Below, in pieces: positions 33,551-62,907 of a DNA stretch of 64,000 nt. Under the pieces are notes generated by a model. The model saw only the letters and a program-made list of their open reading frames with translations. It did not search any database and was not told the origin of the DNA. The position numbers were made by a program, and so were the translations under genes. Source of the stretch: Caulobacter sp. BK020 (lineage in GTDB: Bacteria > Pseudomonadota > Alphaproteobacteria > Caulobacterales > Caulobacteraceae); contig NZ_SLZL01000021.1 in assembly GCF_004342605.1 (NCBI RefSeq), forward strand, positions 1 to 64,000, given 5' to 3'. How positions within the stretch are numbered: position 1 is the first letter of the stretch; every line of letters begins with the position of its first letter.

Positions 33551-33656
33551 CTAGAGCAAGTCGCGCGATATAGGAATCGCACGACTTGCTCTAGATTTTT
33601 GTTTTCGCATCGCTTTTGCGGAAAACCGGCGTCCACTTTTCCGCGCGATGCTCTAG
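33551..33656. repeat. Composite intergenic palindromic repeat
   Basis: The first half is CTAGAGCAAGTCG (33551-33563) facing CGACTTGCTCTAG (33582-33594), a perfect 13-bp inverted repeat. The second half (33595-33656) contains GCATCGC/GCGATGC and GCGGAAAA/TTTTCCGC nested stems and ends in CTCTAG. The block is bounded by CTAG at both ends and in the middle. The wording CGCATCGCTTTTGCGGAAAA is one I recognise from dispersed intergenic elements in alphaproteobacteria. It sits between the convergent kinase and MFS genes. The last CTAG provides the MFS stop codon, so insertion of the element may have reset that gene's 3' end. Confidence 0.8.
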
Positions 33657-34954
33657 GAGGGCGACCCAAGCCGCGCCCGGTCCAATCGGCCCATGGCGTA
33701 AAAGATCAGGATGCTGGTCACCACCAGCACGCCGGCCAGGGCCAGCATGGGCGCCAGGTTGCTGCCCGTCGCGTCGCGCACCAGCGGCACCAGGTTCTGG
33801 GCGATGAAGCCGCCCAGATTGCCGATCGCGTTGATCGCCGCGATGCCTGCCGCCGCGCGCGGACCGCTGAGGAAGCTTGGCGGCAGGCTCCAGAACACCG
33901 GCTGGGCCGAGAAGATGGCTGGAGCCGCGACGCAGAGCATGGCGAACTTCAGCGCCGCGCCCGGCAAGATCACGCTCAGGGTCAGGGCGATCGCCGCCAC
34001 CAGGGTCGGTCCGGCGATGTGCCAGGCGCTGGCGCCGTGGCGCGCGGCGTGGCGCGGCACCAGCCACAGCGCGATGGCGACCAGCAGCCAGGGGATCACA
34101 TTGACCAGGCCGTTGACGGTGTTGGACACCCCGAACGACTTGACGATGGTGGGCAGCCAATAGCTGAGGCCGTAGGCCCCGAGGGGCATGCCGATATAGA
34201 GCCCCGCCAGCAGCAGGACGCGCGGATCGAACATGGCCTTCCAGGCTCCGCGATGGTCATCGACCGCGCCGCCGCGCTCCTGGTCCAGCACGCCAGCCAG
34301 CCAGGCCTTGCCCGCCTCGGGCAGCCACTTGGCCTGGGCCGGGCCGTCAGGGAGTTTCCACAGGACGTAGGGCGCCAGCAGGACGGCCGGGGCGCCGGTG
34401 GCGAGGAACACCCATTGCCAGCCGGCCAGGCCCAGCACCTGGTCCAGGTCCAGCAATAACCCGCCCACCGCCGACCCCACGGCGTTGGCCACCGCGCTGG
34501 CCACCATGAACAGGCCCACCATGCGCGCACGATGCGCCTGGGGATACCAAAGGGTCAGCACGTAGAGCACGCCGGGGAAGAACCCCGCCTCGGTGACGCC
34601 CAGCAGGAAGCGCAGGCCGTAGAACATCGCCGCGTTCTGGGTGAAGCCCAGGGCCAGGGTCACCAGGCCCCAGGTGAACATGATCCGGGTGAACCAGACC
34701 CGCGCGCCCACCCGGGCCAGGATCAGGTTCGACGGGGCCTCGAACAGGAAGTAGCCGATGAAGAACAGCGACGCGCCCAGGCCGTAGGCGGCCTCGCTCA
34801 GCCCCAACGCCTTCACCATCTCCAGCTTGGCGTAGGAGACGTTCTGCCGGTCGATATAGGCGATCAGGTACATCAGGCAGAACAGCGGCATCAGCCGCGC
34901 GGTGATCCGGCCGATCGTCGCCGTCTCCGTTCGGGCCTCGGCGGGGTCAGACAT
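33653..34954 (-). CDS. MFS transporter, anion:cation symporter (ACS) type
   Basis: A 433-residue major facilitator with twelve predicted segments. The N-terminal LMPLFCLMYLIAYIDRQNVSYAKL and FFIGYFLFEAPSNLILARVGAR are typical of the ACS subfamily (tartrate, hexuronate, galactonate and phthalate transporters). The substrate is therefore probably an organic or sugar acid. The ATG at 34954 overlaps the LacI-family gene by 8 nt, so the regulator and transporter form one unit. The C-terminal codons (LGSPS) run into the palindromic repeat, which supplies the TAG stop. Confidence 0.85.
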   Translation of the reverse strand: MSDPAEARTETATIGRITARLMPLFCLMYLIAYIDRQNVSYAKLEMVKALGLSEAAYGLGASLFFIGYFLFEAPSNLILARVGARVWFTRIMFTWGLVTLALGFTQNAAMFYGLRFLLGVTEAGFFPGVLYVLTLWYPQAHRARMVGLFMVASAVANAVGSAVGGLLLDLDQVLGLAGWQWVFLATGAPAVLLAPYVLWKLPDGPAQAKWLPEAGKAWLAGVLDQERGGAVDDHRGAWKAMFDPRVLLLAGLYIGMPLGAYGLSYWLPTIVKSFGVSNTVNGLVNVIPWLLVAIALWLVPRHAARHGASAWHIAGPTLVAAIALTLSVILPGAALKFAMLCVAAPAIFSAQPVFWSLPPSFLSGPRAAAGIAAINAIGNLGGFIAQNLVPLVRDATGSNLAPMLALAGVLVVTSILIFYAMGRLDRARLGSPS

Positions 34955-36204: not shown

Positions 36205-36471
36205 CTACTGAGCTTCCGCCCGCGACCCGAAGCTCATCATGCGAGCCGCAATCGCCGCCTGGGTGCGGTTGTGCACGTTGAGTTTGCGCATCACGGCCGT
36301 CATGTGCGCCTTGACCGTGGCCTCGGCGATTCCGAGGTCGAAGGCGATCTGCTTGTTGAGCCGCCCGGAATTGACCCCTTCCAGGACCTTCATCTGGGTC
36401 GGCGTGAGCTCGCAAAAGCCGACGTTCAGATCCCCTTCGGCGTCACGTTGTTTCATCGCGGTCATGGTCAT
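36205..36471 (-). CDS. Stand-alone LuxR-type HTH protein
   Basis: An 88-residue protein consisting almost only of a GerE/LuxR DNA-binding domain: LTPTQMKVLEGVNSGRLNKQIAFDLGIAEATVKAHMTAVMRKLNVHNRTQA. There is no receiver or autoinducer domain. AGGAGG about 11 nt upstream of the ATG at 36471, or AGGGG before the ATG at 36465, supports translation. It may be the remnant of a NarL-type response regulator or an independent small regulator of the GerE kind. It reads toward the LacI gene with a 175-nt gap. Confidence 0.8.
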   Translation of the reverse strand: MTMTAMKQRDAEGDLNVGFCELTPTQMKVLEGVNSGRLNKQIAFDLGIAEATVKAHMTAVMRKLNVHNRTQAAIAARMMSFGSRAEAQ

Positions 36472-36886: not shown

Positions 36887-37564
36887 ATGAGCCAAGGCCG
36901 CCTAGCCGACCGGGCCTATACCGCCATCGTCGAGATGATCAACACCGACGGCCTGGCCGTCGGCGATCGCCTGCCGTCCGAAGCGCGCCTGGCCGAGACG
37001 CTGGGCATGTCGCGCACCATCGTGCGCGAAGCCCTGGTGCGCTTGGCCGCCGACAGCATCACCGAGGCCCGGCGCGGGGCGGGGTCCTTCGTCAAGAACC
37101 GGCCGTCCGACAAGCTGGGCGCCTACATGCCGCTCTCCGAGCTGCCCTCCACCCTCGGCAGTTACGAGGTGCGGTTCGTGCTTGAGGCCGAGGCGGCGCG
37201 GCTGGCGGCGGCGCGGCGCTCGGCCGAGGAGATGGCCGGCATCGAGGAGGCGCTGTCGAAGCTGCGCGAGGCCCTGCTGTCGAACGCGCCGGCCCATGCC
37301 GAGGACATGGAGCTTCATCGCCGCATCGTGCAGGCCACCGCCAATCCGGCCTTCCTGGTCACGTTCGAGGCGCTGCAGCCCGACGTCGACCGGATCATGC
37401 GGGCGGGGGTGGACATATCGCGATCGCGGCCGCCGGAAGCGATCGCGGAGATGATGCGCGAGCACGAGATGATCGTTGAAGCGATCCGCGCCCAGGATGG
37501 CGACAGCGCCGCCCTGGCCATGCGCTGGCACCTCTCGCGCGGACGAAAGCGTCTAATGCCCTGA
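36887..37564 (+). CDS. GntR-family regulator, FadR subfamily
   Basis: A 225-residue regulator with a winged HTH at residues about 8-72 (DRLPSEARLAETLGMSRTIVREALVRL) and an all-helical FCD domain (about 85-220; VRFVLEAEAARLAA, HRRIVQATANP, EHEMIVEAI). The start is ATG at 36887 with GGAG 9 nt upstream; a TTG five codons earlier is in frame but lacks a site. FadR-subfamily members usually respond to small carboxylates such as gluconate or hexuronates. The gluconokinase gene converges on it with a 12-bp 3' overlap. It is the best local candidate to bind the shared dyad at 38213 and 44411. Confidence 0.88.
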   Translation: MSQGRLADRAYTAIVEMINTDGLAVGDRLPSEARLAETLGMSRTIVREALVRLAADSITEARRGAGSFVKNRPSDKLGAYMPLSELPSTLGSYEVRFVLEAEAARLAAARRSAEEMAGIEEALSKLREALLSNAPAHAEDMELHRRIVQATANPAFLVTFEALQPDVDRIMRAGVDISRSRPPEAIAEMMREHEMIVEAIRAQDGDSAALAMRWHLSRGRKRLMP

Positions 37565-38119
37565 GGCGCGGACCACGGCGCCGGCATGATGCGCATCGCT
37601 TTCCAGCCAGGCGAGCGTGTGGTCGCAAAGCCGCTCGGGCGGCGCAGTGGTGTCGAGCGTGAAGATCGCCTCGTCAGGACCTGGACGTTCGAGCGTGGCC
37701 AACTGACTGTCCAGCAGGCTGGCGGGCATGTAGTGGCCGGAGCGCTGGGTGAGCCGTCGCAGCAGCTCGTCCTGGCCGGCGTCGAGCAGGACGAATCGGG
37801 TGTTAGCCCCGATGGCGGCGCGCAAGCGTTCGCGATAGCCGCGCTTCAGCGCCGAGCAGGCCGCCACGACCCGTCCGCCGCACGCAACAGCCTCACCCGC
37901 GGCCAAGCCCAGGCGGTCGAGCCAGGGCCATCGGTCGCTGTCGTCGAGGGGCTGGCCAGCGCTCATCTTGGCGACCGCCCGCGCATCGTGAAAATCGTCG
38001 CCCTCCAGGAACGGGCAGTCCAGCCTCCGGGCCAGCAAGGCGCCCAGCGTCGACTTGCCGCTGCCGCTCACGCCCATGGCGATGACGGCGAACGGGGCGA
38101 GGCGGGGTGGCGGCGGCAA
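37553..38119 (-). CDS. gntK: Gluconokinase
   Basis: A P-loop kinase of about 188 residues that phosphorylates D-gluconate to 6-phosphogluconate, feeding the Entner-Doudoroff pathway. Walker A is in MGVSGSGKSTLGALLA. FLEGDDFH, KMSAGQPLDDSDRWPWL and CSALKRGYRERLR are signatures of the family. The start is uncertain: TTG at 38119 has AAGGA 6 nt upstream. An upstream extension in the same frame runs through the operator dyad and is unlikely. It converges on the GntR gene (12-bp overlap) and is divergent from the beta-helix protein operon. Confidence 0.9.
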   Translation of the reverse strand: MPPPPRLAPFAVIAMGVSGSGKSTLGALLARRLDCPFLEGDDFHDARAVAKMSAGQPLDDSDRWPWLDRLGLAAGEAVACGGRVVAACSALKRGYRERLRAAIGANTRFVLLDAGQDELLRRLTQRSGHYMPASLLDSQLATLERPGPDEAIFTLDTTAPPERLCDHTLAWLESDAHHAGAVVRASGH

Positions 38120-38212
38120 GCGCGTTCCTTGATCTCCGGCCAGCCGTCGAATGATCGACAGACCGATCCCAGGTTGAGATGGGTTTCTACCGGCCGGCCG
38201 ACCGGACGTAAC

Positions 38213-38228
38213 TACGACCATGGTCGAG
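38213..38228. promoter_or_regulatory. Shared dyad, copy 1 (before the beta-helix operon)
   Basis: TACGACCATGGTCGAG matches the perfect 16-bp palindrome TACGACCATGGTCGTA at 44411 in 14 of 16 positions, with a perfect CGACCATGGTCG core (38215-38226). It lies between divergent gntK and the first beta-helix gene, about 57 nt before the latter's start. A FadR/GntR or LacI-type regulator site is likely. Confidence 0.6.
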
Positions 38229-38284
38229 GATGGCCGGCGGGGGCGGTTTCCTTATCGATAAGGGATTGCGACGAGGAGAGCGGC

Positions 38285-41200
38285 ATGAGAGCGGTCCTTT
38301 TGGCGGCGTTTCTGGCCATTTCGACGCCGGCTCTGGCCTCGACCGGCTCGGTTCTGCTCACCGCGCCGGACGATCCGCGCGCGATCACCGTCAAGGGCGT
38401 GGGCGACGGTCGCGCGGACGACACTCAAGCGGTGCAGCAGGCCATCGACGCGGCGCGGGACAAAACCGGTCATGGCCTGGTGTTCTTGCCGTCGGGCCGC
38501 TATCGGCTCAGCCGCAGCCTCCTGATCCCGCCGGGCGTGCGCCTCTTCGGCGTGGGCCCGACGCGGCCGGTCTTCGTGCTGGGGCCCAACACGCCGGGCT
38601 TCCAGAAGGGGGTCGGCACGCTGATCGTGTTCGCGGGCGGCGACCAGTACCAGGTCGGCGACATCCCCGTGCCCGTGCCAACCGTGGTCCCCGCGACGGA
38701 AAAGGTGCGCGACGCCAATTCCGGCACCTTCTATTCGGCGCTCAGCAATGTCGACGTGGAGATCGGAGAGGGCAATCCCGCCGCTGCGGGGGTGCGGTTC
38801 CGCATGGCCCAGCACGCCTTTCTCAGCCACATGGACTTTCGCCTGGGCTCGGCCTTCGCCGGCGTCTACCAGGCCGGCAACATCATGGAGGACGTCCACT
38901 TCCACGGCGGCCGCTACGGTATCGTCACCGAAAAGACCTCGCCCGCCTGGCAGTTCACTCTGATCGACTCCACCTTCGACGGGCAGCGCGACGCGGCGAT
39001 CCGCGAGCACGAGGTCGACCTGACCCTGGTCAATGTGGCCATCAGGAATACGCCGGTCGGCATCGAGATCGACCGCGGCTACAGCGACAGCCTGTGGGGC
39101 AAGAACGTCCGTTTCGAGAACGTCTCGAAGGCGGGCGTCGTCATCTCGGCCGAGAACAACGTCTTCACCCAGGTCGGGTTCGAGAACGCGGTGGCGGCCA
39201 ACACCCCGGTGTTCGCCCGCTTCCGCGACAGCGGCAAGACCGTGGCCGGCAAGGGCAAGGCCTACAAGGTGGCCTCGTTCACCTACGGCCTGACCCTGCC
39301 GGGCCTGGGCCAGATGGGCGAGTACAAGACCGATGTGGCCATGACCGCCCTTCCGGCCTTGCCGGCGGCCCCGGCCCCGGCGCTTCGCGACCTACCGCCC
39401 GTCGCCGACTGGACCAACGTCAGGACCCTGGGCGTCAAGGGCGACGGCCAGGCCGACGACACCGCCGCCCTGCAGAAGGCGATCGACACCCATAGCGTGC
39501 TCTACCTGCCGATCGGCTTCTACAAGGTCACCGACACACTGAAGCTGCGGCCCGACACGGTGCTGATCGGCCTGCACCCGGCCCTGACCCAGCTGGTCAT
39601 CCCCGACGACAATCCGCGCCACGCCGGGGTCGGGCCCGTGGCCCCAGTGCTGGAAACGCCCCGAGGTGGGAGCAATATTCTGTTCGGCCTGGGCGTCTTC
39701 ACCGGCCGGATCAACCCTCGGGCTTCGGCGCTGCTTTGGCGATCGGGCGCGAACTCCCAGGTGACCGACGTCAAGATCATGGGCGGCGGCGGCACGCCCA
39801 CCATGGACGGCAAGCCGCTGGGCGCGGCCCAGGCCCGCAGCGGCGATCCGGTGGCCGACGGCCGCTGGGACGCCCAGTACCCCAGCATCTGGGTGACGGA
39901 CGGCGGCGGCGGCACGTTCGCCAACGTCTGGAGCCCCAACACTTTCGCATCGGCGGGCTTCTACATCTCCGACACCAGCACCCCCGGCCACATCTACGAG
40001 GTCTCGGTCGAGCACCATGTGCGCAACGAGTTCGTGCTGGACAACGTCCAGAACTGGGAGTTCCTGGCGCCGCAAACCGAGCAGGAGGTCGGCGACGGTC
40101 CCGACGCTGTCTCGCTGGAGGTGCGCAACTCGCGCAACATCCTGTTCGCCAACTATCACGGCTATCGCGTGACGCGGTCGTATCACCCGGCCGAAACGGC
40201 GGTGAAGCTGTTCAACTCGTCGGACATCCGCTTCCGCAATGTCCACATCAACGCCGAGAGCGGCGTGGCGCTTTGCGACAAGATCGGCTGCGGCACTTAT
40301 CTGCGGGCCAGCAAGTTCCCGTTCGAGAACGCGATCCAGGACAAGACCAGCAAGCTGGAGGTACGCGAGCGTGAATTCGCGGTGCTCGACGTCACCAGCA
40401 GGTCTGAGCCGGTCGCTCCGGCCGAGGAGGGCAAGGTCCAGAAGCTGGGAAGCGGCTTCTGGTCGATTTCCGGCGCGGCCGTCGGGGCCGACGGTGCGCT
40501 CTATTTCGTCGAGAAGCGTTTCCAGCGGATCTATCGCTGGACCCAGGCCAGGGGCCTGGAAGTGGTGCGCGACCACTCGCTGGATCCGACCAACCTGGCC
40601 GTGGACCGCTCGGGAAACCTGCTGGTGGTGTCGTCTTACGGACCACAGGCTTCTGTCTATTCGATCGATCCCGATGGCCCCAAGCACCAGATGACGCTCA
40701 TCGCGCCCACGCCGACGGGGTCCCGGCCCGACGCCAAGACCCTGCTGCCGGTCAACTGGTGGAACAACGGCGAGTTCAAGGATCAGTACGATCCGGCCAG
40801 CGGCCAGTTCACCACCCTGGCCGAGATGTTCGCCCGCGACGTCGGCGCGCCCAAGGCGCAGGAATACGTCTCGCCCGATGGCAGTCTGTCGCTGCCGGCC
40901 TTCCGGGTGTGGCAGCAGGGACCGCCCGACCATGTCGGCTGGCGCTGGGCCGACAGCCTGCAAGCCCATGGCCTGATCGGCGGCGCGATCGGCGAGCGGG
41001 TCTTCGTCACCAACGAGTCCGAGGGCAAGACTTATAGCGGGCAGGTTGGGCCGGGCGGGACGCTGACCGACCTGAAGGTCTTCGCCAACCGGGGCGGCGA
41101 GAGCGTCGCCGTCGACGGCCAGGGACGGGTGTTCGTCGCCAACGGCCAGATCTTCCAGTACGAGCCCGATGGCCGGCTGGCGGGTCGCATCGACGTGCCC

Positions 41201-41290
41201 GAGCGTCCACTGCAGCTGATCTTCGGCGGGGAGGGCGGCAAGACCCTGTTTGTCCTCACCCATCATTCGCTCTACGCGGTGACGCCCTGA
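38285..41290 (+). CDS. Exported double beta-helix (Pectate_lyase_3/GH55-like) protein with C-terminal SMP-30-like propeller, copy A
   Basis: A 1001-residue exported protein. The start is ATG at 38285 with GAGGAGA 6 nt upstream; residues 1-18 are a signal peptide. Two right-handed beta-helix domains of the Pectate_lyase_3 kind begin at about residues 35 (VKGVGDGRADDTQAVQQAID) and 378 (TLGVKGDGQADDTAALQKAID). This is the paired arrangement of GH55 beta-1,3-glucanases. From about residue 719 a region with VGADGALYFVE, LAVDRSGNLLVVSS, SVAVDGQGRVFVANG and a C-terminal RPLQLIFGGEGGKTLFVLT resembles SMP-30/gluconolactonase propellers. Substrate is inferred only: a beta-glucan or related glycan, possibly with a lactone end. 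The paralogue follows after 28 nt. Confidence 0.75.
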   Translation: MRAVLLAAFLAISTPALASTGSVLLTAPDDPRAITVKGVGDGRADDTQAVQQAIDAARDKTGHGLVFLPSGRYRLSRSLLIPPGVRLFGVGPTRPVFVLGPNTPGFQKGVGTLIVFAGGDQYQVGDIPVPVPTVVPATEKVRDANSGTFYSALSNVDVEIGEGNPAAAGVRFRMAQHAFLSHMDFRLGSAFAGVYQAGNIMEDVHFHGGRYGIVTEKTSPAWQFTLIDSTFDGQRDAAIREHEVDLTLVNVAIRNTPVGIEIDRGYSDSLWGKNVRFENVSKAGVVISAENNVFTQVGFENAVAANTPVFARFRDSGKTVAGKGKAYKVASFTYGLTLPGLGQMGEYKTDVAMTALPALPAAPAPALRDLPPVADWTNVRTLGVKGDGQADDTAALQKAIDTHSVLYLPIGFYKVTDTLKLRPDTVLIGLHPALTQLVIPDDNPRHAGVGPVAPVLETPRGGSNILFGLGVFTGRINPRASALLWRSGANSQVTDVKIMGGGGTPTMDGKPLGAAQARSGDPVADGRWDAQYPSIWVTDGGGGTFANVWSPNTFASAGFYISDTSTPGHIYEVSVEHHVRNEFVLDNVQNWEFLAPQTEQEVGDGPDAVSLEVRNSRNILFANYHGYRVTRSYHPAETAVKLFNSSDIRFRNVHINAESGVALCDKIGCGTYLRASKFPFENAIQDKTSKLEVREREFAVLDVTSRSEPVAPAEEGKVQKLGSGFWSISGAAVGADGALYFVEKRFQRIYRWTQARGLEVVRDHSLDPTNLAVDRSGNLLVVSSYGPQASVYSIDPDGPKHQMTLIAPTPTGSRPDAKTLLPVNWWNNGEFKDQYDPASGQFTTLAEMFARDVGAPKAQEYVSPDGSLSLPAFRVWQQGPPDHVGWRWADSLQAHGLIGGAIGERVFVTNESEGKTYSGQVGPGGTLTDLKVFANRGGESVAVDGQGRVFVANGQIFQYEPDGRLAGRIDVPERPLQLIFGGEGGKTLFVLTHHSLYAVTP

Positions 41291-41318
41291 CCCGGATCTT
41301 GAAGACGAGAGGCTGCCC

Positions 41319-44300
41319 ATGAAGAGCTGGCTCGCCGCGCCTTGCGCGGCCCTGATCGCGCTGTTCGTGGCGGCGAGCGGACCAGCGGCGGCCTCGGTCT
41401 CGATGTTCGCGACCACGCCCGAGGATCCGGCCGCCGTCGTGGTGCGGGGCAAGGGCGACGGCCGCGCCGACGACAGCGCCGCCCTGCAGGATGCGATCGA
41501 CGCGGCCGCGGCCAAGCCGGGCGGCGGTCTGGTCTTCCTGCCTTCGGGCCGTTACCGCATCAGCCGGACGCTCTTCCTCTGGCCGGGGGTGCGGATGTTC
41601 GGGGTCGGCGCTGTCCGCCCGCGGATCCTGCTGGGCGATGCGACGCCGGGATTCCAGAAGGGCGTGGCCAATATGGTGATCTTCGCCGGCGCCAAGCCCG
41701 ACCCGACGCGCCGCGTGCCGTTCCCGCCGCCCGGCAGCGTGCCGTTCAACAAGGACGTCGCCGACGCCAATTCGGGCACCTTCTATTCGGCGATGAGCAA
41801 CATCGACTTCCAGATCGGCAAGGGTAATCCGGCGGCGACGGCGATCCGCTTCCACGCCGCCCAGCACGCCTATCTCAGCCACATGGAATTCGACATCGGC
41901 TCGGGCCTGGCGGGCCTGCACCAGGTGGGAAACACGGCCGAAGACCTGCACTTCAAGGGCGGGCGCTACGGTATCCTGGCCGAAAAGACCTCGCCGGCCT
42001 GGGGATTCGTGCTGCTTGACTCGACCTTCGAGGGCCAGCGCGAGGCGGCGATCCGCGAGCATGAAGCGGGCCTGACCCTGGTCAATGTGGCCATGCGCGA
42101 CACGCCGGTCGGGATCGACATCGATCGCGGCTACGGCGACTGGCTGTGGGGCAAGGACGTCCGCTTCGAGAACGTCTCGAAGGCCGCCGTCGTCATCTCC
42201 AACGAGAACAACGTCTACACCCAGGTCGGTTTCGAGAACGCGGTCGCGGCCAGCACCCCGGTATTCGCCCGTTTCCGCGACAGCGACCGGACCGAACCGG
42301 GACGGGGACGCGCCTATCGGGTCGCGGCGTTCAACTACGGCCTGGTCCTGCCGGGTCTTGGGCGGATGGGCGAATACCGAACCGCGATGCAGGCCGAGAC
42401 CATCTCGGCCTTGCCGGCGCGGCGCGCCCCCGCGATCCGGGCTTTGCCGGCCATGTCCGATTGGGTCAACGTGCGGACCTTGGGGGCCAAGGGCGACAAC
42501 GCCGCCGACGACACGGCCGCGATCCAGAAGGCTATCGACACCCACCGCGTGGTCTATTTCCCGACCGGCTTCTACCGGGTCACCGACACGTTGAGGCTTC
42601 GACCGGACACCGTGCTGGTCGGCCTGCATCCCAGCCTCACCCAGATCGTGCTGCCCGATGGAACCTCCGGCTATCAGGGCGTCGGCGCGCCCAAGGCCCT
42701 GGTCGCCTCCGCCGCCGGGGGCGATGGCGTCGTTTCGGGCCTGGGCCTCAACACTGGCGGCGTCAATCCGCGCGCCACGGCGCTGTTGTGGACGGCGGGC
42801 GCCGGTTCGCTGGTCGAGGACGTCAAGTTCCAGGGCGGCCACGGCACCAACCTGTATGACGGTACGCGGTTCAATCCCTACAACGCCAACGCCACGGCGG
42901 ACGCCGATCCGGCCAAGCGCTGGGCGGGTCAGTATCCCAGCCTGTGGGTCACCAACGGCGGCGGCGGGACCTTCTCCAACCTCTGGAGCCCCAGCACCTA
43001 CGCCTATTCCGGCATCTACGTGTCCGACACCCAGACCCCCGGCCACGTCTACCAGACCTCGGTCGAGCACCACATGCGCACCGAGATCAGCCTCAACCGG
43101 GTCGCCAACTGGGAGTTCCTGGCGCCGCAGACCGAGGAGGAGGCGGGGGAGGGCGAGGACACCGTCTCGCTGGAGATCCGCGACTCCCACGACATTCTGC
43201 TGGCCAACTATCATGCCTATCGCGTCACGCGGACGCGCAAGCCGGCGGCGGCCGCTGTCAAGGTCTACAATTCGCGGGACATCCGTTTCCGCAACGTGGC
43301 GGTGAACGGCGAAAGCGGCTTTTCGACCTGCGACGAAGACGGCTGCGCGACCTTCCTGCGGCTGACCAAGTATCCGTACGAGAACGCCATTCAGGACGTC
43401 ACAAGCGGGCTTGAGGCGCGGGAGCGGCAGTTCGCGGTGCTTGACCTGGTCGCAGATCCGGCGCCGGTCGCGCCCTCGACCTTTCCCGTCGGCGCGCGGG
43501 TGGAGAAGCTCGCCGACGGCTTCTATTCGCTGGGCGGCGGCGCCGTGGACGCGGCCGGGACGCTGTACTTCACCGACCGCCGCCACCAGCGCATCTATAG
43601 CTGGTCCGCCGAGCGCAAGCTGTCGATCGTCCGCGACAACACGCTGGATCCGATCAACCTGGCCGTCGACGGCTCGGGGAGCCTGCTGGTGTTGTCGTCG
43701 GACGGCCGCAACGGCACGGTCTACAGCTTCAAGCCGGGCGCTCCCGACACCGAGGTCACGGTGATCGCGCCGACACCGGCCGCCGACCATCCGGCGGCGG
43801 CTGCAGTGCTGCCGGTCAACTGGTGGAACAATGGCGAGTTCAAGGACCAGCTCGATCCGCGAACCTACCAGTTCACCACCCTGGCCGAGATGTTCGCCCG
43901 CGACATGGCGCTGCCCAAGCCCAAGGCGTACGTGTCGCCGGACGGCAGCCTGGCCCTGCCGGCCTATCGCGTCTTCCAGCAGGGACCGCCCGACTTCCGC
44001 GGGCTGCGCTTCTCCGACGCGCTCGACACCTACGGCTTCACCACCGCCAAGCCCGGCCAGCGGGTGTTCGTGACCAACAGCTCGGAGAACAGGACCTATA
44101 GCGGGCTGGTCGGTCCGAAGGGCGCGATCACCGAGCTGAAGGCCTTCGCCGATCGCGGCGGCGAGAGCGTCGCGACGGACGGGGAAGGGCGCGTCTATGT
44201 CGCCAATGGACAGGTGTTCGTCTATGCGCCCGACGGCGGGGAACTGGGCCGCGTGGACATCCCCGAACGCCCGCTGCAACTGGTCTTCGGCGGGCCGGAC

Positions 44301-44357
44301 AAGCGGACCCTGTTCGTACTGACCCATCACGCGCTGTACGCAGTTCGACGCGACTAG
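41319..44357 (+). CDS. Exported double beta-helix protein with SMP-30-like propeller, copy B
   Basis: A 1012-residue paralogue of the preceding gene with the same architecture: signal peptide (1-26, ending AAAS), first beta-helix from about residue 40 (VRGKGDGRADDSAALQDAID), second from about 385 (TLGAKGDNAADDTAAIQKAID), and propeller from about 730. Blocks such as PVNWWNNGEFKDQ, FTTLAEMFARD and the RPLQL-FGG-LFVLTHH end are shared with copy A. The intervening loops differ, so the duplication is old and the pair may have split specificity. The ATG at 41319 is 28 nt after copy A, so the two are cotranscribed. Neither catalytic residues nor substrate can be assigned from the sequence alone. Confidence 0.75.
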   Translation: MKSWLAAPCAALIALFVAASGPAAASVSMFATTPEDPAAVVVRGKGDGRADDSAALQDAIDAAAAKPGGGLVFLPSGRYRISRTLFLWPGVRMFGVGAVRPRILLGDATPGFQKGVANMVIFAGAKPDPTRRVPFPPPGSVPFNKDVADANSGTFYSAMSNIDFQIGKGNPAATAIRFHAAQHAYLSHMEFDIGSGLAGLHQVGNTAEDLHFKGGRYGILAEKTSPAWGFVLLDSTFEGQREAAIREHEAGLTLVNVAMRDTPVGIDIDRGYGDWLWGKDVRFENVSKAAVVISNENNVYTQVGFENAVAASTPVFARFRDSDRTEPGRGRAYRVAAFNYGLVLPGLGRMGEYRTAMQAETISALPARRAPAIRALPAMSDWVNVRTLGAKGDNAADDTAAIQKAIDTHRVVYFPTGFYRVTDTLRLRPDTVLVGLHPSLTQIVLPDGTSGYQGVGAPKALVASAAGGDGVVSGLGLNTGGVNPRATALLWTAGAGSLVEDVKFQGGHGTNLYDGTRFNPYNANATADADPAKRWAGQYPSLWVTNGGGGTFSNLWSPSTYAYSGIYVSDTQTPGHVYQTSVEHHMRTEISLNRVANWEFLAPQTEEEAGEGEDTVSLEIRDSHDILLANYHAYRVTRTRKPAAAAVKVYNSRDIRFRNVAVNGESGFSTCDEDGCATFLRLTKYPYENAIQDVTSGLEARERQFAVLDLVADPAPVAPSTFPVGARVEKLADGFYSLGGGAVDAAGTLYFTDRRHQRIYSWSAERKLSIVRDNTLDPINLAVDGSGSLLVLSSDGRNGTVYSFKPGAPDTEVTVIAPTPAADHPAAAAVLPVNWWNNGEFKDQLDPRTYQFTTLAEMFARDMALPKPKAYVSPDGSLALPAYRVFQQGPPDFRGLRFSDALDTYGFTTAKPGQRVFVTNSSENRTYSGLVGPKGAITELKAFADRGGESVATDGEGRVYVANGQVFVYAPDGGELGRVDIPERPLQLVFGGPDKRTLFVLTHHALYAVRRD

Positions 44358-44410
44358 GCTGGGCGACGCGACCGTCACGCGCCCTTTGCCCAGCGGCCGA
44401 TCGTTCGACG

Positions 44411-44426
44411 TACGACCATGGTCGTA
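44411..44426. promoter_or_regulatory. Shared dyad, copy 2 (before the second TonB-dependent receptor)
   Basis: TACGACCATGGTCGTA is a perfect 16-bp palindrome 80 nt before the receptor start. The near-identical copy at 38213 lies before the beta-helix operon, so one regulator probably controls both. No third copy was noticed in the window. Confidence 0.7.
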
Positions 44427-44505
44427 ATGGTTCACGCCTCTTTTGTCTGACAGTTTTCGGGCAGGCCATCGTCGATGGACTCAACGAAAAACGGGAGGCA
44501 GCAGG

Positions 44506-47505
44506 ATGCGTGGTGTCGGACCATCCTTTTTGAGCGCTTTGTTCGCGACCAGCGCGGTCGCGGTATTCCTGTCGGCGGGGACCGCCAGCGCGCAGACGGA
44601 GCCGGCCCCGGCGCCGGCCGATCCGGCCTCCGCGACCGCCCTGTCCGAGATCGTGGTCACGGGCACCCGCATCCGGTCGACCGGCTTTACCGCGCCGACG
44701 CCGACCCAGGTTCTGGGTCAGGCCGACCTGGAGCGCGCCGCCCAGCCGAACATCTTCACCGCCATCACTCAGCTGCCCTCGCTGCAGGGGTCAAGCGGCG
44801 CGACGACGGGCACGTTCAGCACCTCCAGTGGCCAGCAGGGTCTTTCCTCGTTCTCGCTGCGCGGCCTGGGCACCATCCGCACCCTGACCCTGCTGGACGG
44901 CCAAAGGGTCGTGCCAGCCAACGTCACGGGCGTGCCGGACATCAGCCTGTTCCCGCAGTTGCTGGTCGAGCGGGTGGACGTGGTGACCGGCGGCGCCTCG
45001 GCGTCCTACGGCTCGGACGCCGTCGGCGGCGTGGTCAACTTCATCACCAACAAGAAGTTTGTTGGCTTCAAGGCCAACGTCCAGACCGGCGTCACGACCT
45101 ATGGCGACAACCACCAGTGGCTGGCCCAGGTCGCCGCCGGCAAGAACTTCATGGACGACCGCTTGCACCTGCAGGTCAGTGGTGAATACGACTGGGAGGA
45201 GGGCGTTCCGGCGGGCGGCTTCGGCGAGGATGCGCCCGGCAGCCGCGACTGGTACACGACCGCCACCCTGGTCAACCGGGGGATCACCAATGACGGCTCG
45301 CCGCAGTATCTCTATCGCGAGCACGCCCAAGCCTATCAGTACACCAAGTACGGACTGATCAGCAGCGGCCCGCTGCAAGGCACGGCCTTCGACATCAGCG
45401 GCAATCCGTTCCAGTTCCAGTACGGCTCGAACGGCGTGCCGACCAAGGCCTCGACCGGTCCGACCGTCGGCCAAGTCGTCGGCTGCTACACGAACGGCGG
45501 CTTCTGCGTCGGCGGCGACCTGTCGGGCAATGTCGGCGTCGGCACCTCGTTGCAGTCGCGCATCAAGCGCATGAACACCTACACGCGCGTGGGCTTCGAT
45601 CTGGACGCCAACAACGAGATCTACGCGACCTTCAACGCCGCCCGCGTGGAGAGCTCCAACCAGCCCAATCCGGGCGCGGCCACGACCGGCCTGACGATGT
45701 CGTGCGCCAACCCGTACCTGCCGGCGTCGATCGTTGCGGCCTGCGCCGCCAACGGCGTCACGACCTTCGGTTTCGGCACCAGCAACGCGCTGCTGCCGCG
45801 CAACATCTCGGTCCATCCCACGCGGACCCAGTATCGTGGCGTCATCGGGGCGGACGGCAAGTTCAACGCCCTGGGCAAGGAATGGCGCTACGACGCCTAT
45901 TACGAGCACGGCGAGAACACGACGAACATCCACGTTCGCGACATCCTGCTGATGCCGCGCTATCGCGCGGCCGTTCAGGCCGTCTCGGTAAATGGCCAGA
46001 TCGTCTGCGCCGACCCGATCGCGCGCGCCAACGGCTGCGTGCCGATCAACATCTTCGGCGGCCAGCGCCCCAGCGACGCCGCCCTGGCCTACATCACGCC
46101 CGAGAACGGCCCGTACCAGCACTCGGTGCAGAAGCAGGACGTCGCCAGCATCAACTTCAGCGGCGAGCCCTTCTCGCTATGGGCCGGCCCGATGTCGCTG
46201 GCGTTCGGCGGAGAGTGGCGCAAGGAGCAGTACCACGTCCAAGGCGACCCCTACGGCGACGGCAATACGGACTCTCCGAACACCGCCGACTATCCGGCCG
46301 ACCCGGTTCTCAACCCGGCCGGCGCCAACTGGTTCGCGGGCAACTATCACTCCGGCGCCGGCAAGTACTCGGTGAAGGAAGCCTATGCGGAAGTGAACAT
46401 TCCGCTGGTCAATTCGGAGGCCGCCGGCAAGGCCAACCTCAACATGGCCGGCCGCTGGACCGACTACAGCACCTCGGGCACCGTCTACACCTGGAAGGTC
46501 GGCGCCACCTGGGACACGCCGATCGATGGCGTCCGCCTGCGGGCCGTCACCTCGCGTGACGTCCGCGCGCCGAACCTGTCGGAACTGTTCGCCGCGCCGG
46601 TGACGACGACCCTGCCCAACTTCACCATTCCGTCGCCCGGCACGCCCCCGCCTGGCCAGCCCGCCAGCGGCTCGCTGACGGCTTTGCAGAATGTGGTGGG
46701 CAACCCGAATCTGAAGCCGGAAATCGCCAAGAACGTGACCATCGGCGCGGTGCTCTCGAACCCCCAATGGCTGCCGGGCTTCAGCGTCTCGGTCGACTGG
46801 TACAACATCGTCCTCAATGGCGGCATCTCCAGCCTGGGCGCTCAGCAGATCGTCAATTTCTGCTATGCGGGCCTCACTCAGTTCTGCGGCGCCTTCAATC
46901 TCGCCCCTTCGGGCGGCGTGACGCCGTTCATCAACTCCCAGACGTTCAACCTGGCCTCGATCAAGACCAGCGGCTTCGACATCGAGAGCAGCTACCGCTT
47001 CGAGCTGCCCGGCGTGCCTGGCCGCTTCACCATCCGCGGCCTGGCGACGAACACGCACAAGTTCGTCACCAACCCCGGGATCCCTGGGGCCGTCGCCACC
47101 GATTCGGCTGGCCAGAACTCCGGCGCCACGCCGGACTGGAAGGTCCTCGCCATCCAGTCCTGGGACACCGACCGCTTCGCCTTGAGCGTACAGGAGCGCT
47201 GGTTCAGCGACGGCAGGTTCGGCGGAACGACCACCGAGTACGTCGAGTGCAAGCCCGGCAGCTGCCCCATCTCGACCGGTAGCCGGCCGACCATCGACTA
47301 CAACCACATGAAGGGCGCGACCTATGTCGACGTCAGCGCCTCGTACAAGTTCGGCAACGGCCTGCAGCTCTACGGCAAGGTCGACAACCTGCTGAACCGC
47401 GATCCGACGCCGTCGCCCCAGACCAACACCGGCCTGGACGCCAACCCGGCGCTCTACGACCTGCTGGGCCGCTTCTATCACCTGGGCCTGCGCTACAGCT
47501 TCTAA
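44506..47505 (+). CDS. TonB-dependent outer-membrane receptor
   Basis: A 999-residue receptor. The start is ATG at 44506 with GGGAGG 7 nt upstream; a signal peptide ends near ASAQ. The plug begins at LSEIVVTGTRI and has RTLTLLDGQRVV, VERVDVVTGGASASYGSDAVGGVVNFIT. The barrel ends in GLRYSF. It belongs to a different TonB-dependent receptor subgroup from the one at 605 (GTRI-type plug, RVDVVTGGASASYGSDAVGGV), commonly found in Caulobacterales and sphingomonads. It lies downstream of the two beta-helix proteins and shares their palindromic operator, so it probably imports the oligosaccharides those proteins make. Confidence 0.9.
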   Translation: MRGVGPSFLSALFATSAVAVFLSAGTASAQTEPAPAPADPASATALSEIVVTGTRIRSTGFTAPTPTQVLGQADLERAAQPNIFTAITQLPSLQGSSGATTGTFSTSSGQQGLSSFSLRGLGTIRTLTLLDGQRVVPANVTGVPDISLFPQLLVERVDVVTGGASASYGSDAVGGVVNFITNKKFVGFKANVQTGVTTYGDNHQWLAQVAAGKNFMDDRLHLQVSGEYDWEEGVPAGGFGEDAPGSRDWYTTATLVNRGITNDGSPQYLYREHAQAYQYTKYGLISSGPLQGTAFDISGNPFQFQYGSNGVPTKASTGPTVGQVVGCYTNGGFCVGGDLSGNVGVGTSLQSRIKRMNTYTRVGFDLDANNEIYATFNAARVESSNQPNPGAATTGLTMSCANPYLPASIVAACAANGVTTFGFGTSNALLPRNISVHPTRTQYRGVIGADGKFNALGKEWRYDAYYEHGENTTNIHVRDILLMPRYRAAVQAVSVNGQIVCADPIARANGCVPINIFGGQRPSDAALAYITPENGPYQHSVQKQDVASINFSGEPFSLWAGPMSLAFGGEWRKEQYHVQGDPYGDGNTDSPNTADYPADPVLNPAGANWFAGNYHSGAGKYSVKEAYAEVNIPLVNSEAAGKANLNMAGRWTDYSTSGTVYTWKVGATWDTPIDGVRLRAVTSRDVRAPNLSELFAAPVTTTLPNFTIPSPGTPPPGQPASGSLTALQNVVGNPNLKPEIAKNVTIGAVLSNPQWLPGFSVSVDWYNIVLNGGISSLGAQQIVNFCYAGLTQFCGAFNLAPSGGVTPFINSQTFNLASIKTSGFDIESSYRFELPGVPGRFTIRGLATNTHKFVTNPGIPGAVATDSAGQNSGATPDWKVLAIQSWDTDRFALSVQERWFSDGRFGGTTTEYVECKPGSCPISTGSRPTIDYNHMKGATYVDVSASYKFGNGLQLYGKVDNLLNRDPTPSPQTNTGLDANPALYDLLGRFYHLGLRYSF

Positions 47506-57663: not shown

Positions 57664-58968
57664 ATGGAACAACGCCCATCGGAGCGGACGGCCCTCGCCC
57701 CGCTCGTACTCATCGTCGCCCTGTTCTTTCTATGGGGCGTGGCCAACAACCTCAACGACGTGCTGATTCCCCACCTGAAGAAGGCCTTCTTCCTGACCGA
57801 CCTGCAGTCGGGCCTGGTGCAGATGGCGTTCTATCTGGGCTATTTCTTCCTGGCCCTGCCGGCCAGCGCGGTCATGCGCCGCTACGGCTACAAGGCCGCG
57901 GTGATCGTCGGCCTGCTGCTGTTCGGCCTGGGCGCCCTGCTGTTCTGGCCCGCCGCCGAGGCGCGGCAGTATTCCTTCTTCCTGGCCGCCCTGTTCGTCC
58001 TGGCCTCGGGCCTGGCCTTCTTGGAAACCTCGGCCAATCCGCTGATCACCGTGCTGGGCGACCCGGCCAAGGCCGAGCAGCGCCTGAACTTCGCCCAGGC
58101 CTTCAATCCGCTGGGCTCAATCACCGCCGTGGTGGTCGGTCGCCAGTTCATCCTGTCGGGCGTGGAGCCGACCAAGGCCGAGTTCGCGGCCATGACCCCG
58201 GCCCAGTTGCAGGCCTTCCAGACCGCCGAGGCCCATTCGACCCAGGTCCCATACCTGATCATCGCCGCCGTCGTGCTGGGCTGGGCCCTGCTGGTGGCCC
58301 TGACCAAGTTTCCCCACCAGGCAGGGCGGCCCGATCCCGGCGAGGACGAGGCCGGCCTGCCGGCCGCCCAGGCGATCCCGGCCCTGCTGGCCCGGCCCCG
58401 CTTCGTGTTCGGCGTGGCGGCGCAGTTCTTCTATGTCGGCGCCCAGGTCGGGGTGTGGAGCTACATGATCCGCTACGCCCAGCATGAGCTGCCGGGCCTG
58501 GGCGAGAAGGCGGCGGCGGCCTATCTGTCCTGGTCGCTGGTCGGCTTCATGGCCGGACGCTTCGTCGGCACGGCCGCCATGAGCCGCGTGCGCCCGTCGC
58601 TGCTGATGGGGCTTTTCGCGGCGATCAATGTCGGCCTGACCCTGGTGGCCGCCCTGGTCGGCGGCAAGGTCGGGCTCTACGCCCTGGCCTCGACCAGCTT
58701 CTTCATGTCGATCATGTTCCCGACCATCTTCGCCGGCTCGCTGAAGGGCCTCGGGCCGTTGACCAAGACCGGCTCGTCGTTCCTGGTGATGAGCATCATC
58801 GGCGGCGCGGTGCTGACCACCCTGATGGGCGCCGTCTCTGACGCCACGGCCATCGACCTGGCCATCCTGGTGCCCTGCGCCTGTTTTGCGGTGGTCGGGC
58901 TGTTCGGCTTCACGGCCGGCCGCGCCACTCGCGAAGACCTGAAGACCGCCCCAGCCGGAGCTCACTGA
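57664..58968 (+). CDS. fucP: L-fucose permease (FucP family MFS)
   Basis: A 434-residue major facilitator of the fucose:H+ symporter family, twelve predicted segments. FFLWGVANNLNDVLIPHLKKAF, SGLVQMAFYLGYFFLALPA and LETSANPLITVLGDPAKAEQRLNFAQAFNPLGS are strongly characteristic of FucP. The start is ATG at 57664 with AAGGAAG upstream. It heads an operon whose next ATG overlaps its stop. Substrate L-fucose is the best guess; other FucP-family members move galactose, glucose or GlcNAc. Confidence 0.85.
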   Translation: MEQRPSERTALAPLVLIVALFFLWGVANNLNDVLIPHLKKAFFLTDLQSGLVQMAFYLGYFFLALPASAVMRRYGYKAAVIVGLLLFGLGALLFWPAAEARQYSFFLAALFVLASGLAFLETSANPLITVLGDPAKAEQRLNFAQAFNPLGSITAVVVGRQFILSGVEPTKAEFAAMTPAQLQAFQTAEAHSTQVPYLIIAAVVLGWALLVALTKFPHQAGRPDPGEDEAGLPAAQAIPALLARPRFVFGVAAQFFYVGAQVGVWSYMIRYAQHELPGLGEKAAAAYLSWSLVGFMAGRFVGTAAMSRVRPSLLMGLFAAINVGLTLVAALVGGKVGLYALASTSFFMSIMFPTIFAGSLKGLGPLTKTGSSFLVMSIIGGAVLTTLMGAVSDATAIDLAILVPCACFAVVGLFGFTAGRATREDLKTAPAGAH

Positions 58969-59981
58969 TGATGGACGCCCTAGTCTGCGCGGCTCCGGGA
59001 CACCTGGTCCTGGAGCGGCGCCCCATCCCCGAGCCGGCTGATGGCGAGGTGCTGATCCGTGTGCGCCGCGTGGGGGTGTGCGGCACCGACATGCACATCT
59101 ATCGCGGGACCCAGCCCTTCCTGGCCTATCCGCGCGTGATGGGCCACGAACTGGCCGGCGAGGTGGTCGCGGCCCCCACGGGCGGCGGCCTGGTCTCGGG
59201 GGATCCGGTCTATGTGATGCCCTACATGTCGTGCGGGACCTGCGCGGCGTGCCGCAAGGCCAAGCCCAACTGCTGCATGAACATCCAGGTCCTGGGCGTA
59301 CACTGCGACGGCGGCATGGCCGAGTACCTGGCCGTGCCCGAGGGCTTTGTCCGCAAGGCCGAAGGGATCAGCCTGGACGAGGCGGCGATGGTCGAGTTCC
59401 TGGCCATCGGCGCGCACGCCGTACGCCGGGCCGCCATCACGCCGGGACAGTCGGTGCTGGTGGTCGGCGCCGGTCCTATCGGCATCGCCGCCGCCCTGTT
59501 CGCCAAGCTGCAGGGCGGGGTCGTCACGGCGCTGGACAGCCGCCAGGACCGCCTGGACTTCTGTCGCGACCACCTGGGCGCCGACCATGTGGTGAGCCTG
59601 GGCGACGAGACGCGGCAGGCCTTGTCCGACCTGACCGCCGGCGACTTCTTCGACGTGGTGTTCGACGCCACCGGCAACCCCAGGGCCATGGAGGCGGGCT
59701 TCGCCTATGTCGGTCATGGCGGCGCCTATGTGCTGATCTCGGTGGTCGGGGCCAACATCGCCTTCTCGGACCCCGAGTTCCACAAGCGTGAGACGACGCT
59801 GATGGGCAGCCGCAACGCCACCCCCGAGGACTTCGACGCGGTGGTGGCGGCAATGCGGGCGGGCAAGGTCCCCACCAAGGCGCTCAACACCCACGCCGCG
59901 ACCCTGGCGGAAGTCGCGGAAGCCCTGCCAGGCTGGATGGAGCCTCAGGCCGGGGTGATCAAGGCGATCGTCTCGTGCTGA
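58968..59981 (+). CDS. Zinc-dependent alcohol dehydrogenase, L-galactonate/L-gulonate dehydrogenase-like
   Basis: A 337-residue medium-chain dehydrogenase. Zinc ligands are visible: catalytic site CGTD and GHE, structural site CGTCAACRKAKPNCC (four Cys). The nucleotide motif is VVGAGPIGIAA. Segments SDPEFHKRETTLMGSRNATPEDF and GVHCDGGMAEYL closely resemble E. coli LgoD/YjjN (L-galactonate 5-dehydrogenase). Since 6-deoxy-L-galactonate is L-fuconate, an enzyme of this group acting on fuconate or 2-keto-3-deoxy-fuconate would fit the operon. It overlaps fucP by 1 nt and the lactonase gene by 7 nt. Confidence 0.8.
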   Translation: MMDALVCAAPGHLVLERRPIPEPADGEVLIRVRRVGVCGTDMHIYRGTQPFLAYPRVMGHELAGEVVAAPTGGGLVSGDPVYVMPYMSCGTCAACRKAKPNCCMNIQVLGVHCDGGMAEYLAVPEGFVRKAEGISLDEAAMVEFLAIGAHAVRRAAITPGQSVLVVGAGPIGIAAALFAKLQGGVVTALDSRQDRLDFCRDHLGADHVVSLGDETRQALSDLTAGDFFDVVFDATGNPRAMEAGFAYVGHGGAYVLISVVGANIAFSDPEFHKRETTLMGSRNATPEDFDAVVAAMRAGKVPTKALNTHAATLAEVAEALPGWMEPQAGVIKAIVSC

Positions 59982-60802: not shown

Positions 60803-60806
60803 GGCC

Positions 60807-62614: not shown

Positions 62615-62907
62615 GTCTGATCCTGCTGCATCCCGACGATAACGTGCTGGTGCTCAGCGCGCCGGTGCGCGCGGGTCAGGCCCTGATGATCGACGGCCAG
62701 GCCGTGACGGCCGCCGTCGATGTCGGCGTCGGCCACAAGCTGGCCCGCCGGGCCCTCGTGGTCGGCGACAAGGTGCTGAAGTACGGCGCGCCGATCGGGT
62801 CGATCACCGCGCCGGTCGCGGCCGGCGGCCACGTTCACCTGCACAACATGAAGAGCGACTACATCGCCAGCCACACCCGGCAGGCGACGGGCGCGAAAGG
62901 ATCATGA
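62611..62907 (+). CDS. UxaA-family dehydratase, small SAF-domain subunit
   Basis: A 98-residue SAF-domain protein (VDVGVGHKLARRALVVGDKVLKYGAPIG, GGHVHLHNMKSDY) matching the N-terminal part of altronate/galactarate dehydratases, here a separate gene. The HLHNMKS tail is the conserved HVHN motif region. It overlaps both neighbours by 4 nt. With the next gene it should make a split sugar-acid dehydratase, probably acting on L-fuconate in this operon. Confidence 0.85.
   Translation: MSLILLHPDDNVLVLSAPVRAGQALMIDGQAVTAAVDVGVGHKLARRALVVGDKVLKYGAPIGSITAPVAAGGHVHLHNMKSDYIASHTRQATGAKGS

What the first reader, a model, noticed from the sequence alone, without database searches (positions are those of the whole stretch)
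36887..47505. Possible aldonolactone/beta-glucan utilisation system with a shared operator
Two tandem ~1000-residue exported proteins combine GH55-like double beta-helices with an SMP-30/gluconolactonase-like propeller. They are flanked by gluconokinase, a FadR-type GntR regulator and a TonB receptor. One model is cleavage of a glycan, opening of a terminal lactone by the propeller, uptake and phosphorylation of gluconate. I do not know this fusion as a described system.
Basis: inference. Interest (0 to 1): 0.65.

Follow-up and report, generated by a model that had tools for sequence, protein, structure and literature searches.

The report
Gluconate regulon with helix-propeller enzyme pair
A group of soil, water and plant bacteria carries a conserved gene set that appears to break down a sugar polymer outside the cell, turn sugar into gluconate and import it, built around a large, apparently undescribed two-part enzyme and possibly including a sugar-oxidising enzyme whose role in these bacteria was unclear.

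Summary
36887-47505 carries a FadR-type regulator, a gluconokinase, two tandem exported ~1000-residue paralogues and a TonB receptor. An AlphaFold model (pLDDT 90.9) shows a GH55-type double beta-helix (Z 32.6 to Lam55A) followed by a propeller nearest gluconolactonases (Z 17.9). The fusion is a conserved family in Caulobacter, sphingomonads and Duganella (77 loci kept), linked with gluconokinase (56 of 78 loci, window included), FadR (54), and GntP symporter (48) or an MFS (9), never both.

The shared operator TACGACCATGGTCGTA is real: 90 sites (3 mismatches allowed) in 57 of 78 loci, 87 intergenic; present in 50 of 54 loci with FadR and 5 of 24 without. In this genome it also precedes an exported esterase and aldose-aldose oxidoreductase (AAOR), a lactone-making enzyme whose physiological role was published as unclear. 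AAOR also lies in 11 of 78 helix-propeller loci.

Best reading: glycan cleavage outside the cytoplasm, AAOR oxidation to a lactone, gluconate uptake and phosphorylation. The GH55 general-acid Glu is invariant (98 of 98). The glycan is unknown. All activities are inferred.

The parts
33653..34954 (-). MFS transporter of the galactonate/HpaX type; probable gluconate importer in place of GntP
   Evidence: TIGR00893 260 bits, under its 395 cut-off; such an MFS in 9 of 78 loci, never together with GntP; no GntP in this genome
34947..36185 (-). LacI-family regulator next to the MFS (start uncertain)
   Evidence: Pfam LacI and Peripla_BP_3; LacI cluster in 12 of 78 loci
36205..36471 (-). 88-residue LuxR-type HTH protein, conserved beside the system
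   Evidence: Pfam GerE E 1.8e-19; in 40 of 78 loci
36887..37564 (+). FadR-type (FCD) GntR regulator, the likely operator-binding protein
   Evidence: Pfam FCD and GntR; in 54 of 78 loci; operator before system genes in 50 of those 54 and 5 of the other 24
37553..38221 (-). gluconokinase; the ATG at 38221 lies in the operator, so the start is probably further inside
   Evidence: TIGR01313 170 bits over 113.75; only one in the genome; in 56 of 78 loci
38213..38228 (.). operator TACGACCATGGTCGAG between gluconokinase and helix-propeller 1
   Evidence: conserved at this place in relatives
38285..41290 (+). helix-propeller protein 1, exported; propeller about 40418-41287
   Evidence: start
41319..44357 (+). 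helix-propeller protein 2, exported
   Evidence: AlphaFold pLDDT 90.9; GH55 fold Z 32.6
41418..42413 (+). first beta-helix of protein 2 (residues about 34-365)
42450..43469 (+). second beta-helix of protein 2 (residues about 378-717)
43134..43136 (+). codon of Glu606, candidate general acid (aligned with MnLam55A Glu614)
   Evidence: alignment; invariant 98 of 98; Glu614 from PMC10637969, passages
43473..44354 (+). propeller of protein 2 (residues 719-1012)
   Evidence: own model pLDDT 92.9; Z 17.9 to 3e5z
44411..44426 (.). perfect operator TACGACCATGGTCGTA before the TonB receptor
44506..47505 (+). TonB-dependent outer-membrane receptor
   Evidence: Pfam plug and barrel; in 66 of 78 loci

Best explanation
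This is the main locus of a FadR-controlled regulon for oxidative use of a glucose-containing glycan. Oligosaccharides enter through the TonB receptor (inferred). The exported helix-propeller pair cleaves glycosidic bonds with the GH55-type site between the two helices, Glu606 as general acid, Glu583 and His584 kept (fold and residues shown, activity inferred). AAOR, exported and preceded by the same operator elsewhere in this genome, oxidises the released glucose or a reducing end to a lactone (enzyme class shown by homology, role inferred). The lactone opens by an SGL lactonase, by itself, or in the propeller (open question). Gluconate crosses the inner membrane by GntP, or by the MFS in Caulobacter, and gluconokinase makes 6-phosphogluconate for the Entner-Doudoroff route. 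FadR binds TACGAC-N4-GTCGTA and probably lets go on a gluconate-type ligand (inferred).
For: Conserved linkage in 78 loci of three orders with different gene orders: gluconokinase 56, FadR 54, GntP 48 or MFS 9 (never both), TonB receptor 66 (orders). GntP over its curated cut-off in the two members tested (353 and 464 vs 292.75 bits). Sole gluconokinase of the genome, no GntP, edd present. Operator: 90 sites with at most 3 mismatches, 87 intergenic, 82 within 400 bases upstream of helix-propeller, TonB receptor or gluconokinase genes. Twenty scrambled palindromes gave 0-8 hits at 2 mismatches against 49, and 0-37 at 3 mismatches against 90. One of the only two further sites with at most 2 mismatches in the genome lies between a cupin gene and an esterase-AAOR-oxidoreductase run. 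That AAOR matches C. crescentus AAOR, 5a02, at E 3e-140. Within the 78 loci an AAOR (at least 50% identical) lies in 11, the esterase in 23, a free SGL lactonase in 3 and the cupin in 3. GH55 general acid and Glu/His of subsite -1 invariant in 98 of 98. 21 of 29 relatives with helix-propeller genes have an AAOR of at least 59% identity against 8 of 72 without (relatedness not corrected).
Against: No activity, substrate or induction data. The MnLam55A Tyr617 position is Ala/Val, and the helper residues Trp554 and Asp557 cannot be placed with certainty, so the substrate may not be a beta-1,3-glucan. The propeller lacks the SMP-30 metal triad. AAOR is absent from 8 of 29 relatives with the helix-propeller genes. 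Of seven close AAOR orthologues (at least 83% identical) only two have a clean intergenic site with at most 2 mismatches (this genome and G034); two more have a 3-mismatch site that overlaps the last codons of the gene before, and three have none. FadR binding is inferred from co-occurrence, which is confounded with descent: most Duganella loci lack both, and one Duganella locus has FadR and no site.
Confidence: 0.52

Rival explanations
1. One reading: one polypeptide hydrolyses the glycan with its helices and opens a terminal aldonolactone with its propeller as a metal lactonase.
For: The propeller is SGL-related (Pfam E 7.4e-12; hhalign 99% probability in global mode; Z 17.9 to 3e5z and 17.1 to xylonolactonase 7plb), about as conserved as the whole protein (66% vs 64% mean column identity), with invariant polar residues N838, E840, N920, E949, N963. 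AAOR could supply the lactone.
Against: The metal triad is not kept: Glu18 position I/L/A/V738 or G/S/A739, Asn154 position Y/H/N905, Asp204 position Glu949. Free-standing SGL genes occur in the same genome (four strong ones) and beside 3 of 78 loci.
Confidence: 0.2
2. The propeller is not catalytic: it binds substrate or holds the protein together, and the proteins are plain GH55-like hydrolases.
For: Loss of the SMP-30 metal ligands; NHL and designed propellers score close behind the lactonases (Z about 16).
Against: Invariant polar residues in the propeller in both paralogue groups.
Confidence: 0.35
3. The helices are a lyase or epimerase rather than a hydrolase, as in part of the family PF12708.
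For: PF12708 (rhamnogalacturonase/epimerase) is the Pfam match, and alginate epimerases are among the best single-helix matches.
Against: In the 50 entries listed only GH55 structures align over both helices at low rmsd; two others span both at rmsd above 20. General acid and Glu/His of subsite -1 kept.
Confidence: 0.15
4. AAOR serves osmoprotection (sorbitol) and shares the operator by chance; the locus is only gluconate scavenging beside an unrelated glycan enzyme.
For: GFOR is described so for Zymomonas (PMC4391529, passages); 8 of 29 relatives with helix-propeller genes lack AAOR; clean operators before AAOR in only 2 of 7 close orthologues.
Against: AAOR in 11 of 78 helix-propeller loci; sorbitol was not detected in stressed C. 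crescentus (same paper, about another GFOR-like gene, CC_1630).
Confidence: 0.17

Closest known systems
GH55 beta-1,3-glucanases (Lam55A, MnLam55A, SacteLam55A)
   Same: Double right-handed beta-helix, Z 32.6 over 609 residues; general acid Glu and Glu/His pair kept; Gln of the water relay and a Trp and Phe of the aromatic block kept if the 5m5z and 3eqn alignments are right (hand-read)
   Different: Tyr617 position Ala/Val; relay Ser position Val/Ala; Trp554 and Asp557 uncertain; C-terminal propeller; activity unknown
SMP-30/gluconolactonase propellers (3e5z, 3dr2, XylC)
   Same: Propeller fold and sequence homology over the whole domain
   Different: Metal triad not kept; an insertion of about 40 residues that holds the invariant residues of the motif W.N.EF
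C. crescentus CC1224-CC1225-CC1226 putative operon (gluconolactonase, AAOR, unknown; PMC4628093)
   Same: Same AAOR family, an SGL lactonase and probably the same esterase family; in four of the five fetched relatives with that operon a palindrome with the same half-sites precedes it
   Different: The three genes named there hold no helix-propeller protein; in the window's genome an SGL gene stays alone at the syntenic place while esterase and AAOR sit elsewhere under the helix-propeller operator
gnt operons under FadR-subfamily GntR repressors (Streptomyces SCO1678, PMC5425828, passages)
   Same: FadR-type regulator beside gntK and gntP
   Different: No TonB receptor or exported glycan enzyme mentioned in the passages seen; operators not compared

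Membership tests
GH55 | double right-handed beta-helix | tested here: met
   AlphaFold model, Z 32.6 to 3eqn, 32.4 to 5m5z
GH55 | general acid Glu (MnLam55A Glu614) | tested here: met
   aligned Glu606, 98 of 98
GH55 | subsite -1 Glu591/His592 | tested here: met
   Glu583/His584, 98 of 98
GH55 | Tyr617, which orients the general acid | tested here: not met
   aligned position 609 is Ala 45, Val 44, Tyr 1 of 98
GH55 | Trp554 and Asp557 | tested here: inconclusive
   the alignment to 8jhh pairs them with Trp543 and Asp/Asn546, that to 5m5z, read by hand, with Pro558 and Phe/Tyr561
GH55 | activity on beta-1,3-glucan | not testable with these tools
   needs enzyme assay
SMP-30/gluconolactonase | SGL propeller fold | tested here: met
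   Pfam SGL over cut-off, Z 17.9
SMP-30/gluconolactonase | metal ligands Glu18, Asn154, Asp204 | tested here: not met
   I/L/A/V738 or G/S/A739, Y/H/N905, E949 (ligands from PMC3551927, passages); sequence alignment only, a remade site is not excluded
Gluconokinase GntK/IdnK type | TIGR01313 over cut-off | tested here: met
   170 vs 113.75 bits
GntP symporter in relatives' loci | TIGR00791 over cut-off | tested here: met
   353 and 464 vs 292.75 bits, two members tested of 48
FadR-subfamily GntR regulator | GntR plus FCD domains | tested here: met
Aldose-aldose oxidoreductase (own genome C19) | full-length homology to CcAAOR and export signal | tested here: met
   E 3e-140 over 337 residues; twin-arginine leader read in the sequence by eye
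Aldose-aldose oxidoreductase (own genome C19) | oxidation of an aldose to its lactone | not testable with these tools
   needs enzyme assay

The most novel reading that the evidence does not exclude
An oxidise-first glycan pathway: AAOR oxidises the reducing end of an imported oligosaccharide to a lactone, the remade propeller of the helix-propeller protein recognises or opens that end, and the GH55-like site of the same chain then frees gluconate, which alone crosses the inner membrane. The two paralogues would act on two linkages.
Probability: 0.2. Interest if true: 0.75.

Novelty: new variant of a known kind. Interest (0 to 1): 0.57.

Why it matters
It ties a large exported enzyme family, which ten literature searches did not surface, to gluconate metabolism in Caulobacter, sphingomonads and Duganella. 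It also gives a testable physiological setting to AAOR, an enzyme with several solved structures whose function in Caulobacter was stated to be unclear. A single operator sequence makes the regulon directly testable.

Tried and rejected
Rejected as operators: TACGACCTTGGTCGCG 317-335 bases before AAOR in four relatives (G057, G031, G003, G047). In G057 it lies inside the lactonase frame; I read it by hand as encoding the protein motif VYDLGR and dropped all four from the counts. The C15:66291 site (2 mismatches) lies inside a 636-residue open frame and is taken as chance. With 3 mismatches the genome gives 8 sites against 5 for the reversed control, so the extra four were not used. The relaxed pattern TNCGACNNNNGTCGNA gives 6 sites in the genome, control 2, of which I could tie only the TonB receptor site to the system; the other five were not examined.

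Weaker lead kept apart: TNCGACTTTAGTCGNA before the SGL-AAOR-esterase operon. Within 1500 bases of AAOR and with at most 1 mismatch it occurs in 9 of 21 AAOR-carrying genomes with helix-propeller genes and 1 of 8 without; with 2 mismatches 9 of 21 and 2 of 8 (one search had used the other orientation of the centre). Its centre differs, in three of four fetched loci it was called inside the edge of the neighbouring frame, and it survives in genomes without the system, so another regulator may bind it.

A second AAOR-like gene of the genome (C1:66179, 50% identical) has no neighbour matching my reference set. Papers: the ten searches listed no description of the fusion or of this locus that I recognised from titles and abstract starts; this covers open-licence PMC only. 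Of papers I saw passages (PMC10637969 with outline, PMC3551927, PMC8529709, PMC9795676, PMC4391529, PMC5425828) or passages and one section (PMC4628093); all others only as listings.
Full report
What is there. The window comes from a 5.13 Mb genome; the nearest named matches of its helix-propeller protein are Caulobacter. Between 36887 and 47505 lie a FadR-type regulator, a divergent gluconokinase, two tandem exported paralogues of about 1000 residues (63% identical) and a TonB receptor. Before them are a LuxR-type HTH protein, a LacI regulator and an MFS transporter of the galactonate type.

The fusion. AlphaFold with 98 sequences gives pLDDT 90.9 and pTM 0.91 for the second protein; the first was not modelled. 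Residues about 34-717 match GH55 enzymes over both helices (Z 32.6, 2.7 A, 609 residues to Lam55A). The propeller modelled alone (pLDDT 92.9) is nearest to gluconolactonases 3e5z and 3dr2 and to C. crescentus xylonolactonase (Z 17.9, 17.8, 17.1), with NHL domains close behind (16.7). The scan confirmed 166 stretches and kept the best 80, which give 77 loci, among them Caulobacter, Phenylobacterium, Sphingomonas, Sphingobium, Novosphingobium and Duganella. A midpoint-rooted tree of 98 copies sets 53 copies of the second kind apart with support 1.0 from 30 copies of the first kind and 15 others, the latter with Duganella; both kinds occur in Caulobacter and sphingomonads, and Duganella loci show one copy.

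Active sites. In MnLam55A the general acid is Glu614, with Glu591/His592 in subsite -1 (PMC10637969, passages). These align with Glu606 and Glu583/His584, invariant in 98 of 98. By hand reading of the HMMER alignments to 5m5z and 3eqn, Gln172 falls on Gln182, Trp552 on Trp556 and Phe143 on Phe155, each 98 of 98, and the relay Ser on Val/Ala203. Tyr617 falls on Ala/Val609. For Trp554 and Asp557 two alignments disagree: 8jhh puts them on Trp543 (96 of 98) and Asp/Asn546, 5m5z on Pro558 and Phe/Tyr561. In the propeller the SMP-30 metal ligands Glu18, Asn154 and Asp204 (PMC3551927, passages) fall on 738 or 739 (no acid in 98), Y/H/N905 (Asn in 12 of 98) and Glu949 (98 of 98). So the helices look like a working hydrolase, while the propeller is conserved but not a canonical lactonase.

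The gluconate module. With home-made gene calls, and the window counted as one locus, 78 loci hold gluconokinase in 56, FadR in 54, GntP in 48, TonB receptor in 66 and the LuxR-type protein in 40. An MFS like the window's is in 9, never with GntP. Gene order differs between Caulobacter (Caulobacterales), sphingomonads (Sphingomonadales) and Duganella (Burkholderiales) while content stays. Several loci are cut by contig ends; 7 of 78 show none of gluconokinase, GntP, MFS or FadR. The window's gluconokinase is the only one in its genome; GntP is absent and edd is present over its cut-off.

The operator. TACGACCATGGTCGTA has two sites in the window (0.06 expected) and two more in the genome with at most 2 mismatches (reversed control 0). 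In the 78 loci there are 90 sites with at most 3 mismatches in 57 loci; 87 are intergenic (20 bases of gene edge allowed) although 88% of the bases are coding by my calls, and 82 lie within 400 bases upstream of a helix-propeller, TonB receptor or gluconokinase gene. Such a site occurs in 50 of 54 loci with FadR and 5 of 24 without. Twenty scrambled palindromes gave 0-8 hits at 2 mismatches against 49, and 0-37 at 3 mismatches against 90; one control with 26 shares the operator's core. That FadR is the binder is inference.

The link to AAOR. One of the two further genome sites (C19:39121) lies between a cupin gene and an exported esterase, AAOR and a second exported Gfo/Idh/MocA protein. This AAOR matches C. 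crescentus AAOR (5a02) at E 3e-140. A relative (G034) has an esterase-AAOR pair with a 2-mismatch site 88 bases before the esterase. In two other close orthologues (G021, G044) a 3-mismatch site overlaps the last codons of the preceding gene, and three have none. Independently, AAOR (at least 50% identical) lies in 11, the esterase (at least 35%) in 23, a free SGL lactonase (at least 40%) in 3 and the cupin in 3 of the 78 loci; one locus, L032, of Sphingomonas sp. PAMC 26605, holds all four.

AAOR oxidises aldoses to aldonolactones while reducing others, with tightly bound NADP, and has been solved with maltotriose (PMC9795676, passages). Its physiological function was called unclear, and CC1224-1226 (gluconolactonase, AAOR, unknown) were noted as a putative operon (PMC4628093, passages and one section). 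The unknown gene is probably our esterase family, judged by gene order in five fetched relatives. In the window's genome an SGL gene stays alone beside a 496-residue gene at that place. Among 101 genomes, 21 of 29 with helix-propeller genes have an AAOR of at least 59% identity, against 8 of 72 without; descent is not corrected for, and two of the 29 (G008, G055) carry a stop in the gene.

Mechanism. The parts make a coherent route: receptor, GH55-like cleavage, AAOR oxidation, lactone opening, gluconate import, gluconokinase, Entner-Doudoroff. Shown: fold, residues, linkage, operator. Inferred: every activity, the order of oxidation and cleavage, and the effector. The substrate is open; GH55 relatedness favours a beta-glucan or glucoside, but changes near subsite -1 allow others.

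Verdict. The lactonase role of the propeller is not supported by its residues. The regulon link to AAOR is the main advance, firm in this genome and in gene clusters of sphingomonads, patchy across other Caulobacter.

Noticed in passing
window 605-31010: Glycan and inositol region: TonB receptor, two GH92, histidine phosphatase, GH115, alpha-N-acetylglucosaminidase and a HGSNAT-like protein around a run of genes that reads like inositol transport and catabolism (the inositol names are recalled from sequence, not searched).
   Followed up: partly
window 57664-63998: Second sugar-acid cluster: MFS (by eye), zinc dehydrogenase, Amidohydro_2 protein that may be a lactonase, and a galactarate/altronate dehydratase domain protein.
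   Followed up: partly
L093:8322-9647 (own genome C19:41321): Exported Gfo/Idh/MocA protein next to AAOR, best NCBIfam match the glycoside 3-dehydrogenase BT_2158 (165 bits, under its cut-off of 750): a possible 3-keto-glycoside step.
   Followed up: no
L136-L139, before the SGL-AAOR-esterase operon: Conserved palindrome TNCGACTTTAGTCGNA with the same half-sites as the window operator but another centre.
   Followed up: partly
window 36205-36471: 88-residue stand-alone LuxR-type HTH protein conserved beside the system in 40 of 78 loci, role unknown.
   Followed up: no
G008:C20:22750-25755 and G055:C3:3192894-3195899: Their only helix-propeller match (62% identical) carries one in-frame TAG in each; both genomes have an AAOR.
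   Followed up: no
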